64,000 bases of DNA from Gymnorhina tibicen (lineage: Eukaryota; Chordata; Aves; Passeriformes; Artamidae). Within the stretch, counting starts at the first letter, position 1. The number at the start of each line of letters is the position of its first letter. The position numbers and the translations under genes were made by a program. The notes beneath the pieces were generated by a model, which saw nothing but the letters and a program-made list of their open reading frames with translations, made no database searches and was not told the origin of the DNA. The stretch spans positions 1,666,640 to 1,730,639 of the forward strand of contig VXAZ01005703.1 of assembly GCA_013399875.1 (NCBI GenBank), given 5' to 3'. Below are positions 1 to 43,216 of the stretch, piece by piece.

Positions 1-1112
<1,112 letters not shown>

Positions 1113-1908: not shown

Positions 1909-3418
1909 AAAGTAACATTTTCCTCAGTGGATAAACGTCCAAACAGGGTCATGTGCACACTAGTCCATCATCAGCCTCTGCTCATCAGCTCCCACACCTA
2001 TGAGCACCGACTGGGTGCAATTTCACTGATTTTTGGCACTGCAGAGAGGCCCAGGTGCACCCGCTCAGATGAGTGAACACACGGCAGATCTGAAGAGACA
2101 CAGATTGCCTGATGGCACAGGCAGTAGTCCAGAGCTGCTCAGACAGACAAATGCCTGGTCAGCAGGAGCAAGGGGGATAGTAGACAAACTCAGGGTGGTG
2201 ACGCTGCACATGTCTGGCTGATGGAGTGCTTAGGAACCACTTCTAGAGCCACACTTCACTGCAGAATGTCAGGGATTGCCTATTCCAGCCAGGCCACTTG
2301 TCTTCCCCAGGCGTCACGTTCCATTTAACTACTACACGTAAGGGCTCCAGGGAATGCCAAACTAGCCAGAATAGATCATTTTTTGCTTTAAACATGGTCA
2401 GTGGCCTCCCTGTCTGACCTTGTTCAGGTAAGTCTGGATAAAGATGGTGCTGAGCCACACCAGACAGCAGCAGCGCAAACATCAGCCCCAGCACATTCCA
2501 CTGTGTTTCAAGGCTGCTGTTACAGACCTGCTTCAGCCCTGAGAAGAAACACCCTCTCTGAACCCTGTGCAACAAAGGTGCCCTGGTATTCTCTTTTCTA
2601 TCTCTGAATCAAGTCTCTTACCTCTACATAGCACTAATAATTTCTTTTTTGTTTTCCTTCTTAGGAAATATAATTTCTTCATACCCTTCTGGTATACTCA
2701 CTCCATCCCTCAGCTCTTATTCCAAGCCCAAAGAAGATGAACAAAAATGAGGTCAGAATCAGATCATTATTTTAACAGCTGACATATTTTTGGACAAATG
2801 CTGGTCCAGCTCCCTTTTCCTCTACCACAACTACTACTAGCCAGAAACAGAGACAGTCACAAGAATACAGACATTGATATCTAAAAGAAATTCCTCAGCT
2901 GTGTAGACAAATTTTCAAATCATCATCTGACCAATTAAGGCATTTTTTTGGTTTGCACCTAGATTCAGCAAAGAAGTCCCTTGAAGTGATTTTAATTAAT
3001 AGTTTAAGTCCTGCTGTGTAGTAAAGGCAAACACATATGACAGGTCATGCAGTTTTGTAGTTCATATCTCGGATGGTGCCCAATATAAAAACTTCCTCAG
3101 CTGATAAGCATTCGAATCATGCATGACAGCAGAGCCAAATCTGCTGTGAATATGTAATCTTCCAGCTTAATCCTCAAATCCTGCATTTTCCAATCATGAA
3201 GAGAGATACAGAGCCACTTTTTATTTTACTTTAATTTCTAACACATAAACCAAATTCATCAGTATCAGGCAATAACATTTATACCTGAAAATTAGTTTGA
3301 AATATATAAAATTATGTTGTGTAAAATTCATCTAATATATTTAATGTACCAGTCCAAAAATATTGGTTAGAGAAGTTAGATAATTTTTAATTTACCTATC
3401 TTTCCATGGCATACTTAC

Positions 3419-3502
3419 AGGTTGTCCATGAATACTCTCAAAATACAGTAGACATTTCTGAAGATTGATTTAACCCAAAGCCATTTGCTTTTTTGTCATA
3501 TC
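3419..3502 (-). pseudogene. FAM13C: Degenerate or poison FAM13 exon with in-frame TAA
   Basis: This is an 84-nt, 28-codon sequence bounded by ttaaatag|GAT and CCT|gtaagt, in phase 0 at both ends. It reads DMTKKQMALG, a stop (TAA at 3472-3470), then INLQKCLLYFESIHGQP. FAM13A has an exon segment of exactly 28 residues at the same place, beginning DMTKDQ and ending LLYYESIHGRP, directly before VTK...PLYDRY. Human FAM13C, as remembered, lacks this segment and joins K directly to VTKQ. The stop is visible. The homology is established by length, phase, position and about 60 percent residue match. Whether it is transcribed into mRNA is unknown. The donor is strong; the acceptor pyrimidine tract is broken by an A-rich run. 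Confidence 0.88.
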
Positions 3503-6500
3503 CTATTTAAAAAAGTTATTTATAAGATTGTGAGTCAGGATTTCATGACAAGGGTACAGGTACATATCTGTTTAATAATCTCTTCTTCCCAGATAAACAT
3601 TGATAATGAATTCTATTTCTGTCTGCACTGAGGTCAATGGGGACTTGGCATTAACTTAGCAAGAAGAGAGTCAAAAATAACATGACTTATATATTAACTA
3701 TGTTTAGTTGCAAAAAATGAGAACAACCACCATTCTAGACAAAATACTCAGAAAACTGGAAAAATGCAGAGAGGACATTCCTCAACTTTTTAATTATTCA
3801 TCAAGAAAGAGAAATAGATTTGCCTTGGCTGCTAAGGAATATAGAACAGAAAGATTCAGCAATGCAAACCCAACACGTTTATGGTGAACAGCTTATTTCT
3901 GCTCAAAAATTGCAATAAGAATCACTGGTACCAAAAGAACGTTGATTTCTCAGTGTTGGTGAATAATCAGTATTTGTACAGGTGTCTGCTGTGGGGAGCA
4001 CACAGTGTAAAAGTTATTTGTCTCCTCCCTTTCCCCAACAAGATCTGCTCCTGACACCTGCATCCATTCACCTGGGCCAGAACACCAAGGAGCACATGAA
4101 GGGAATGTCATTGCCCACAGTCTCTGCCAGGTCACAGTGGAGCTGCCTGAATTAGGGCCAAGTGTTCAGAGGTGGGGGAGAAGAATTAATGTGAAGAACC
4201 ATGGAGTTGGGGGCGCACACACACAGGGGACCTTTCTGCAGAAAGCCGAGGATGAGGGGGCTTTTAGTGACAACTTGGAGAAATGCTTTTCCTAATTAGA
4301 CCCTACTTTTAAAAATATATCCAGCCTTGAAAAGTGACACCCTTCTAATATTAGAGCACCTTGCTATTAACTTCAGCGGGAGCAAAACCTTTTTTGTTTG
4401 ATGCTCAAATGCAAAAGCAGCGCAGAGCCATTCATCAGAACTGCTAATCACATTTTCCCAAAAGGTCTGCATAAGTTAATCACTGTAAAATCGTCTGTCA
4501 TTCATGTTAAGAGATGAGCTGCTAACTAGAATGCAGGAGTATTATAAATCAGCTAATTTGTTTATTTATTGCTAGTTCTGCAATTAATACAAGGTTAATT
4601 CTTTCAAAAACTATTAAGCCTGGAGCAGCTGAATGGTTAGGAAGAAATGGGGTGATCATTAATATTGATTTTACACAAGAGAAATTATCTCAAGAGGGCT
4701 TAGCATTTGAGCCTATTTCATCAGCTCATTTTATTAGCAATCTCAAGACAGGTTGGTATTCAGCTAAGTTTGAAACAGCTGATAATTTCAAAATCAGAGA
4801 AGGCAGCTGGAGTCACAAACTACAGAATTGTCTGAGACATCTTAGGACCGTAGGCTACATACAGCAGCAGGAGGTTCAATGCTAATTAAATAGAAACACT
4901 GCTTCATAGCCAAGGAGAAGATGAAGTGAAGTGGGTCAATGATGAGAAGACAGATACATAAAGGAACAGTCTGAGCAAAGCCTTGGGGGACAGGCTGCAA
5001 ACATTCAGGCAGAAGTTGTTTGCAACATATAAAGAAAGAAAAGGGGGACTTCACCTAAAGATCAGGTCGTAGTTTGGTTTTCATAACTTGGAACAGAGGC
5101 ACACAAAATGCTATATACAGTTATCTTCCTTACTAGTCTGTTCTGTTCCCTGCATGCTTATGCCTTCAAGCTTGCTGTTGTTTTTCCAGACAGAAAGTAC
5201 AAACTCTGGGGACAGAAGGACAGACAGTCCGGTGACGGCTGGGCGTGCCTGGACCCTGTCGAAGGCAGTGCTTTGTTTCCACGCAGGCACAGAGTCAGGT
5301 TCCCAGGGCCTTAGTCTGCTACTAGGGGATGTGTGGTGGCTCATTACAAAGCAGCATTTAACACAAAATTAGAAAGAAAAAGTTTAAAGAAAGGCAACGA
5401 GTGACATGACACCTCCATAGAGCGCTGCCAGTTCCTGTCAGCCGAGGTGAGGCCAGCTCCAAGCTTGGCCCGCTGGGAAAGGCTGGTGAGCCAGAGCCGC
5501 GCACCACAGAGCTGCTGCTCCCGCAGGGCACCGAGGCAGCGATCGCAGCCCCAGCCGCCAAACACTCGGATTGGATTCAAAGCTGGGAGCTGGGTCTTGG
5601 ATCTGTTTTTTGGGGGATTTGGTGCACCTTTTTGAGTGATATGATTCAAAATGTGTTTATTCAAAGAGTGTCTCCTGAACTCCTACATTCATGCTCTTCA
5701 TCTTCATTTTTTCCTAAAGCCTTGTACCTAAACCCAAGGTGAGCTATACATAAATCACCATTTCCCTGCACAAGGAGCTAGTGACACAAACAGTAACAGG
5801 TGGCCACCCCATTGTGGGTTATGAGCTATTCACAGGTCAACCCCAATTTTCCCTACGCCTTCTCATTCAATAACTTTACTCACAGGTTTTTTGCAGGAGG
5901 GGTGTTTTGTTCTGGAAACCACATTCTGCTGTTTCCTATTCAGATCCTGTGGTTTGTGCTCTTTAGACATACTGGGATTTTACTCTGCACCTTTCTAAGG
6001 ACACACATTCTCTCATTTGTGTTTCAGCAGGGCTTTAGAGGCTTTCCACAGTGAACATCAGGGGAGAGCTTGGCAGGCTGGTACAGAAATGCTATCTTTG
6101 CCCAAAATGACTAAATATCAAAAAAGAAACATTTAGCTGCTATTTAGCTTACTATTAATCTAGCTCAGATTCTAGTGCAGGATCTAAATGTTATAAACAA
6201 AATGTTGCACATAAAATACATGTACAGTAACACCAAAGTTGTTTGTAGCTGAAATTAAGCCTTTGATCTTTGCTGTTACCACAGAATCCTTGATTCATTT
6301 CACATTGTCAGTGCCACAAACCTCATTCTCCCACAAAAGTCCAGGATGATTCATAATCAAAATCCAGTCTTTTTTAATGTTATGCTTAGGGAGCTACTAA
6401 AATATATCATTTTGAAGTAGATCAATTTGATTTCATGTTATTCCTGCTCAAGCTTCTGTTCCCCAGCAGTTTTGGACAACTATTACCAAGCATCTTTGCT

Positions 6501-8094: not shown

Positions 8095-8306
8095 CTTAAT
8101 AGTCTCAGGAAGGTTGAAGTGTTGCCTTTTCTCCTTCAGTCGTCTCAACACACTATCCATGGTTTCCTCCACTGAGGGAGCTGGTTCCGTGCTTGTGGCC
8201 TCCTGTGTGCCAGCCTCTTTAGAGGTCCCACTGCTTTCACAGTGCTCATTTCTTTGGGACACTGTGGAGGTACAATTTTGCTCTTCTGACATTCTGAGTT
8301 TCAGCT
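8095..8306 (-). CDS. FAM13C: FAM13C coding exon 10
   Basis: This 212-nt exon completes E363 and encodes residues 364-433. It starts LKLRMSEEQ (human LKLKLSEEQ), has a variable Ser/Thr/Glu-rich middle, and ends SVEETMDSVLRRLKEKR then QHFNLPETIK. The tail is closer to FAM13A (SVEATLESIQRKLQEKR, then PEDIK) than to human FAM13C, where this stretch has drifted. The acceptor is gcctttcag|AGCTG. The donor is ATTAAG|gtattt, weak at +4 to +6. It ends in phase 0 and joins in frame to the VTKQ exon at 1112, or to the degenerate exon at 3502. Confidence 0.95.
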
Positions 8307-18434
<10,128 letters not shown>

Positions 18435-41200: not shown

Positions 41201-43154
41201 CTGAAAGTGCTGTACCACTGCTTTATATCATTCAGGAAGCCCTGCCTTTGCCACAAATAAAGACAGAAATCGTTAAATGACGATGTCTAAATTTGCATGG
41301 CAAGCTCTCTCTTTCTTCCCCTAAATAAAAGTAAATCTATTTTCATCTGTTTTCAGAGATGGCCAGCACAAACAATGAGCTGAAATCAGTAAGAATTGTG
41401 TATCCCCAGCAGCTCTCAAAAACACGATTTGGGGGAAGGCTCCAAAAAAGACTTAGGAAAGGCAACTCTGGAAACCAAGTTTGTTCAACTGGACAATGCT
41501 TTTCAGATGTCATTGTTCACTTGTTTTGTTTTCTAAAAGCACATTTCTACCCTTTTGTTTGGAAATATAAAATGAAACATGAAACCCCACAAACCAGAAC
41601 CAACAATAGCTGAAATGAAGGAGATCCAGCCCTCCTGCCTGGCCCAGCCCAGCTCTGCCACTCTGCTGGCTCTCCCCCTGCACCCCTCTCCATCTCGCCA
41701 AGAGCAGTGTGGGCACCACACTCCCAGCTTTTATACCCTCCTGGGTTTAACACGAAGCCCCACAGAGAAAAGCCGTCACCTTCGGGTCCCAGAAACCTCA
41801 AGGGTGAGGCAGGCCTGGGGGCTGCTGCAGGGGAATCTCTACAGGAAACAATGGATGTACTTAGGGACAGAGAAAAGGGAAGGAGAAAAAAAATATGAAA
41901 AATGTATTATCTGTTATCTGGCTATTTCTCTGTGAAGCGGGAGCAACCCAGAATTTTACAGACCATAATTCATCACTTAACTAACAGGAACACAGGAAAT
42001 GAAAACAAACAAGCATACAAGCAAACAAAAACCCCTCCATGATTTATTAGCTTCAGTGCAATCTTCCCATATCTGCCCCAATCACACAAGAAGTGTGACT
42101 AAATTTAAATATTAAATAAAGCAAGGAAATATAAGCAAATACAGGAAAGCAATATAAGAGAGGGAAATCACTTAGATCTCTATGAACTATTACTTTTCCT
42201 GTAGTGGTTATGACAACACTTAGGGATGATTCAGATGATTACAACTTGGCCTGCTTTCAGAACATACCCTGTCCCCACAGCACTCAGCAAACAGCTCACT
42301 GTCCAGCTGGGGTGCTTTAGATTATGGGCATTTTAGCAGTGTAAAACTCACCCAATACACAAACAAATCCATACATCGTTTTCCTCCCGAAACACAGCTT
42401 GGCACCTCACTGCAGCAGAATCTTACCCAAAAACTTTTGAAACAATCAAAAGCATGCAAAATAATAATATACAGAACACCAATATTGAAATGGTTTAGAC
42501 TACAAGAACACAAAGACCATTTCATTTGCAATAGTTCCTAGAGCCTTTGCCTTTCTAACTTTCTAATGTCCTCCCTTGTTCTGTTGTCTCTGTGAAACAA
42601 CAAGAAAAATCAATGTATACATCCTTGTGATTATGATATATACAAAAGGCCTTCTAAAGAGTTTATGGAATTGATTACAAAGAAATGACGTCTTTGGTAC
42701 TTGGCCTGTCTAAATAATGTATAAGGTTTATTTTTAAATATTTGCTAATAATTTTTTTTCCTAACAATGCTTGTGGTAAGTAGAAACCATGTGTCCTTAG
42801 AAAACAGACATGCTTGTGCTTGACAGGATCATCAGTACCAGAAAGGAGCAATATTTTGACAGGAGGTTTATCTGACACTGAAAATCATGCATTTAAACAT
42901 GTGTGATGTGCACCCAGCATAGAGTCTCCCAAAAAAGGTATTTCACTGCTAAATGGTCACAGAGCATTTAAAGACAGCTGCTTTATGCAATCCTTTCCAT
43001 GCAGTCAATAATATATTTAGATTACAGAAAACGCAATCAAAATATATGACAGATAGCTTGGGACTTCTCACATACCACTTGCAATTATTCTGTACAGTAA
43101 CTAAACTCATCGTTCTCGTTTAAAAATAAGGACATCTTTAAAGTGTTCACTTAC
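38267..43154 (-). other. FAM13C: FAM13C intron 1
   Basis: A 4.9-kb intron. It contains an exact 14-bp tandem duplication at 38848-38875, GC-richer sequence at 39440-39960 that produces long but featureless ORFs, and a small CpG cluster at 41110-41180. Confidence 0.75.
38848..38875. repeat. Exact 14-bp tandem duplication
   Basis: The unit actacacgacagtc occurs twice with no spacer, in FAM13C intron 1. Confidence 0.95.
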
Positions 43155-43216
43155 TCTGCTAAAGCTGTCGTGTTGAAGGACTTATCCTGAATGCTGAAAC
43201 AGAAACAAGAAAACAT
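43155..43216 (-). CDS. FAM13C: FAM13C coding exon 1 (MFSCFCFS start)
   Basis: This encodes residues 1-20 plus two bases of E21. It begins MFSCFCFSIQ and continues DKSFNTTALA; human FAM13C begins MFSCFCFSLQDNSFSSTT. The donor is GCAGA|gtaag at 43154-43150. The start was chosen because it coincides with the human N-terminus. The frame is also open for at least 70 bases upstream of this ATG, so the ATG is not forced by a stop. Codons 2-8 form a pyrimidine-rich run ending in AG (43195-43194), a complete 3' splice site with a branch-like CTGAT about 20 bases further up. The exon could therefore also be entered by splicing at 43193 from an upstream exon that supplies two bases of the serine codon. 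The cysteines near the N-terminus might be lipid-modified; that is inference only. Confidence 0.9.

What the first reader, a model, noticed from the sequence alone, without database searches (positions are those of the whole stretch)
3419..3502. Fossil or poison exon of the FAM13 family inside FAM13C, broken by one in-frame stop
Between exons 10 and 11 there is a 28-codon segment with an AG acceptor, a strong gtaagt donor and phase 0/0. It has the same length as the FAM13A segment that runs from DMTKDQ to LLYYESIHGRP, and ends LLYFESIHGQP. A TAA at 3472-3470 (codon 11) is the only stop. The second half is well conserved while the first half has drifted. Two readings fit. Either the exon was lost recently in this lineage and is decaying, or it is kept as a cassette whose inclusion truncates the protein at about residue 443. 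Human FAM13C, as remembered, lacks the segment, so exon loss may have happened more than once or early.
Basis: partly seen in the sequence, partly recalled or inferred. Interest (0 to 1): 0.85.

Follow-up and report, generated by a model that had tools for sequence, protein, structure and literature searches.

The report
Freshly broken alternative exon of FAM13C
A songbird's FAM13C gene carries an optional 28-codon exon that many other birds, turtles, snakes, a lizard and two frogs have intact, and in this sequence it is spoiled by one small change that makes a stop codon: a modest but clean example of an optional piece of a protein being switched off.

Summary
The segment is real: 84 nt, phase 0/0, AG acceptor, GTAAGT donor, one TAA at codon 11. 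It is neither an old fossil nor, on present evidence, a conserved poison exon. It is the orthologue of a live in-frame cassette exon of FAM13C. Of 255 proteins fetched with FAM13C queries, 84 carry the exon by pattern, plus a drifted turaco copy: songbirds, many other bird orders, turtles, snakes, a lizard, two frogs. For 13 named species the set also holds a protein that skips it at the same junction. Codons 10 and 11 are Glu-Lys in 84 of 84; here they are GGT TAA. The other 26 residues equal those of seven songbird orthologues, so the first half has not drifted. The lesion needs at least three contiguous base changes and was seen nowhere else. Splice signals look intact, so inclusion should give a premature stop and probably decay, while the skipped form stays in frame. 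No fetched protein holds the altered MALG. A regulated poison exon, a private allele or an assembly error cannot be excluded: no reads and no DNA of other birds could be compared.

The parts
3419..3502 (-). 84-nt cassette exon of FAM13C, phase 0/0, broken by one stop
   Evidence: intact orthologues
3470..3472 (-). TAA stop, codon 11 of the exon; codons 10-11 read GGT TAA where 84 of 84 relatives have Glu-Lys
3503..3504 (-). AG splice acceptor of the cassette, after a short pyrimidine tract (CTTTTTTAAATAG)
3413..3418 (-). GTAAGT splice donor of the cassette
8095..8306 (-). upstream FAM13C exon, ending NLPETIK, donor AAG|GTATTT
1017..1112 (-). downstream FAM13C exon VTKQEK...ITTI, donor GTAAGT

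Best explanation
This is an in-frame cassette exon of FAM13C, alternatively included in tetrapods, that has recently been knocked out in this songbird (fixed in the species, or an allele of the sequenced bird). A change of at least three contiguous bases turned GAR AAR (Glu-Lys) into GGT TAA. Shown: the exon, its splice signals, the stop, and intact orthologues in other oscines. Inferred: transcripts that include the exon end at codon 11 and are degraded by nonsense-mediated decay, because the stop lies 51 nt before the end of the exon and a further 96-nt exon with a donor follows; the gene lives on the skipped isoform, which keeps the frame. Also inferred: the change removes a purine-rich GARAAR motif, so it may itself lower inclusion.
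For: Exon and splice signals intact. Orthologous exon in 84 of 255 fetched proteins, Glu-Lys at codons 10-11 in 84 of 84. Seven oscine species have one identical 28-residue exon, from which the window differs only at codons 10-11. 13 named species have both an exon-bearing and a skipping protein with the same junction (names), so the skipped form is a normal product. P0029, an unnamed bird-like protein with the exon, comes from a 5360-base contig although its exons span over 17 kb in this window, so it is most likely a spliced transcript. All other FAM13C exons found in the window are open. GA to TT, which fits if codon 10 was GAG, is a reported signature of polymerase zeta (PMC6633265, section 5 read).
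Against: No read, no second individual and no DNA of another bird was compared, so fixation and even correctness of the TAA are unproven; the ancestral codons are inferred from protein only. Over 68 exon-bearing bird proteins the exon varies slightly more (1.70 mean pairwise differences per 28 residues) than the 28 residues before (1.06) or after it (1.27), so it is conserved but not exceptionally so.
Confidence: 0.68

Rival explanations
1. The stop is not real for the species: a consensus or assembly error, and the exon is a live coding cassette. (A true private allele of the sequenced bird counts under the best explanation.)
For: Everything but three contiguous bases is intact; 84 of 84 relatives have Glu-Lys there; no fetched protein shows the altered residues.
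Against: The window has no N and the other FAM13C exons found are open. A block of three substitutions is not the usual error of long-read consensus, which is mostly indels (general knowledge).
Confidence: 0.2
2. Poison exon: in this lineage the stop-bearing exon is still spliced in, in a regulated way, and lowers FAM13C amount through nonsense-mediated decay.
For: Splice signals are kept, the donor is the full GTAAGT, and the exon is alternatively included in 13 named relatives.
Against: The stop was seen in no relative; MALG in 0 of 255 proteins, weak evidence because the collection is clustered at 90% identity and decayed transcripts are seldom annotated. The intact splice signals are explained just as well by a recent lesion.
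Confidence: 0.07
3. Old fossil: the exon was lost from FAM13C long ago and is a decaying remnant.
For: One stop; no exon-bearing protein among 35 mammal-like, 9 galliform (6 readable) and 13 palaeognath (11 readable) proteins.
Against: Intact in oscines and many other bird orders; 26 of 28 residues intact here.
Confidence: 0.03

Closest known systems
Intact FAM13C cassette exon of relatives (e.g. Vidua P0123, Geospiza P0131, Chelonia P0163, Hymenochirus P0113)
   Same: Same place in the gene, same 28 codons, same phase; 26 of 28 residues equal to oscines
   Different: Codons 10-11 are Glu-Lys there and Gly-stop here
Poison exons that trigger decay (e.g. SCN1A exon 20N, PMC7790302: only the listing and start of abstract seen)
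   Same: Would act alike if included: premature stop upstream of further junctions
   Different: The stop is not shared by relatives and inclusion is not shown
   Different: No call compared them

Membership tests
FAM13C alternative cassette exon | Orthologous position and sequence between the LPETIK and VTKQEK exons | tested here: met
FAM13C alternative cassette exon | Both included and skipped in relatives, in frame | tested here: met
   13 named species with both forms and the same junction; mostly gene predictions
FAM13C alternative cassette exon | Open reading frame through the exon in this species | tested here: not met
   TAA at 3472-3470; so it is a broken copy, not a working member
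Poison exon | In-frame stop upstream of later splice junctions | tested here: met
   51 nt plus 96 nt before the donor at 1016
Poison exon | Stop conserved between species | tested here: not met
   Lys at codon 11 in 84 of 84, and in the drifted turaco copy
Poison exon | Regulated inclusion and decay of the transcript | not testable with these tools
   no RNA-seq reads at hand
FAM13A/B segment | Sequence similarity to the FAM13A/B exon | not tested
   recalled only; the three protein searches went to FAM13C

The most novel reading that the evidence does not exclude
A single multinucleotide mutation turned a conserved coding cassette into a poison exon in one step, and at the same time removed the exon's purine-rich GARAAR motif, so that this songbird now tunes the amount of FAM13C where its relatives tune its form.
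Probability: 0.06. Interest if true: 0.6.

Novelty: new member of a known kind. Interest (0 to 1): 0.3.

Why it matters
If real, it is a natural knock-out of one isoform of a poorly understood gene, caught early: only two codons are hit. With mammals, and perhaps landfowl and palaeognaths, showing no exon-bearing protein and a turaco letting it drift, FAM13C offers several lineages in which to ask what the exon does and what follows its loss. The claim is small and easily tested by resequencing and RNA-seq.

Tried and rejected
The old-fossil reading was set aside; chance similarity. Local template switching as the source of GGTTAA: within 600 nt before and 700 nt after the start of the exon, the only match of 7 bases or more was one 7-base direct match 371 nt upstream, which is no evidence. 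Rescue by an inner acceptor (CAG at codon 15, in frame, after the stop) was considered; 0 of 255 fetched proteins has KCLLY without LQ before it, and the tract before it is poor, so it is not proposed. Bird DNA elsewhere: a degenerate exon pattern gave one hit in genome contigs, inside a bacterial reading frame that I recognise by recall as Mfd-like, and none in viral contigs. Pfam gave no match for the exon region; the PDB gave two weak matches, E 0.36 and 0.73. No tRNA and no Rfam family in the window.

Papers: in the listings (20 of 94 shown; 3 of 3; 8 of 8; 5 of 5), no title or start of abstract mentions this exon; I did not read those papers, except passages of PMC6947481. Listings served as background. 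Of PMC6633265 I saw passages and section 5.

Caveats on counts: the protein collection is clustered at 90% identity, so absence of an isoform there is weak evidence. The 84 of 255 is a count in a set chosen by FAM13C queries (120 of 330 listed, 82 of 82, 120 of 226), not a prevalence. In one search I first saw only three exon-bearing proteins among 120; the pattern finds eight. Galliform, palaeognath, crocodile and fish rows were picked by hand from names; mammals by a motif. An eighth exon-bearing oscine row (P0136, a second Onychostruthus isoform) was left out of the comparison.

Full report
What is there. The 84-nt segment 3419-3502 on the minus strand is as described: AG acceptor, GTAAGT donor, phase 0/0 between FAM13C exons ending NLPETIK and starting VTKQEK, with one TAA at 3472-3470. 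It is the only stretch of 84 nt in the 6982-nt intron that runs from an AG to a GT(A/G)AGT, and exon peptides from relatives match it at E down to 3.2e-14; the same search gave one other row, at 27451-27401, and 223 control peptides gave 17 rows at E<=0.1.

What it is. A protein search with the joined FAM13C exons of the window returned 330 proteins, 120 listed. Similarity to named proteins places the window in a passerine bird, most likely an oscine. Eight of these 120 carry the segment intact by pattern: Acanthisitta (P0020), an unnamed bird-like protein (P0029), three snakes (P0076, P0081, P0109), the lizard Phrynosoma (P0097) and the frogs Engystomops (P0111) and Hymenochirus (P0113) (names, pattern). 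A second search with 40 residues around the exon of P0020 gave 82 proteins: oscines (Haemorhous, Cyanistes, Vidua, two Passer, Onychostruthus, Geospiza), suboscines, storks, owls, raptors, waterfowl, gulls, parrots, pigeons, a cuckoo, a woodpecker and a barbet, turtles, pit vipers and Hymenochirus, among others. In all, 84 of 255 fetched proteins carry the exon by pattern, and a Tauraco protein carries a drifted copy that the pattern missed.

It is a cassette. For 13 named species the fetched set holds both an exon-bearing and an exon-skipping protein with the same junction: Hymenochirus boettgeri, Geospiza parvula, Balearica regulorum, Theristicus caerulescens, Neopsephotus bourkii, Pezoporus occidentalis, Accipiter gentilis, Rissa tridactyla, Larus michahellis, Athene cunicularia, Haliaeetus albicilla, Calonectris borealis and Cuculus canorus (names; junction test). 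Most of these are gene predictions. P0029 comes from a 5360-base contig although its exons cover more than 17 kb in this window, so it is most likely a spliced transcript.

What is broken. Positions 10 and 11 of the exon are Glu and Lys in 84 of 84 relatives; here they are GGT TAA. Seven exon-bearing oscine proteins, one per species, have the same 28 residues, and the window differs from each only at these two. So the statement that the first half has drifted is wrong for FAM13C. From any GAR AAR at least three contiguous base changes are needed. A multinucleotide mutation is a natural source: GA to TT is a reported signature of polymerase zeta, and AAA to TTT was the most prevalent among adjacent triples in one human study (PMC6633265, section 5 read). 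I carry this over to birds by analogy; the ancestral codons are not known.

How conserved the exon is. Across 68 exon-bearing bird proteins the mean number of pairwise differences is 1.70 in the 28 residues of the exon, 1.06 in the 28 before it and 1.27 in the 28 after it; among the seven oscines 0.0, 1.43 and 0.0. The exon is thus kept about as well as its neighbours, not better.

How it most likely works. Shown: the broken frame and the splice signals. Inferred: an included exon ends translation after 443 residues of the short isoform, 147 nt before the donor junction of the next exon, so decay is expected by the usual rule (recalled). The skipped form is unaffected; it is the form of the closest protein in the collection (P0012, 98% identical over 79% of the query) and the only form seen among the 35 mammal-like proteins (24 readable). 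Loss of the optional form is therefore tolerable. The lesion also removes a purine-rich motif of a kind that often promotes exon inclusion (general knowledge), so it may reduce its own inclusion.

Age. If the other 26 codons had been free of constraint, no residue change would be expected with probability 0.31 after 10 and 0.05 after 25 million years, at an assumed rate of 0.002 per site per million years. This is a rough bound that rests on the assumed rate.

Poison exon or not. A search with the window's own 40 residues up to the stop gave 226 proteins, 120 listed; MALG occurs in 0 of the 255 proteins held. This is weak evidence, because the collection is clustered and decayed transcripts are rarely annotated. 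Regulated inclusion in this one species stays open at low probability.

Repeated weakening. No exon-bearing protein was seen among 9 galliform (6 readable), 13 palaeognath (11 readable) and 3 crocodilian proteins (1 readable), and the four cartilaginous fishes and the coelacanth showed the skipped form. Absence from clustered annotation is not absence from the genome. The Tauraco copy has changes at residues that are otherwise invariant or nearly so. The exon may thus be dispensable in more than one lineage.

Limits. Similarity to FAM13A and FAM13B is recalled, not tested.

Noticed in passing
P0197 (Tauraco erythrolophus): Its exon reads DIKKKQMALEKVSLQRCLLYFESIHRRP: no stop, but changes at residues that are otherwise nearly invariant, a sign of relaxed constraint in another bird order.
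   Followed up: partly
proteins: Long FAM13C forms of birds and turtles carry a RhoGAP domain (P0123 residues 55-202; others by precomputed Pfam), while the mammal FAM13C rows listed show none. Residues 1-259 of P0123 were not found in the window.
   Followed up: no
window 43154-43216, minus strand: Start of the short isoform, MFSCFCFSIQ: the bases TTTCAG inside the coding start look like the acceptor used by the long form.
   Followed up: no
window 17993-18058, minus strand: A 22-codon exon EQYHFISPIIDFNLMHQQRDSE, present in P0123 but missing from some other songbird proteins, so probably a second cassette.
   Followed up: no
P0202 (Hirundo rustica): Its skip junction reads LPETIKVKQEK, one residue shorter than in the other songbirds.
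   Followed up: no
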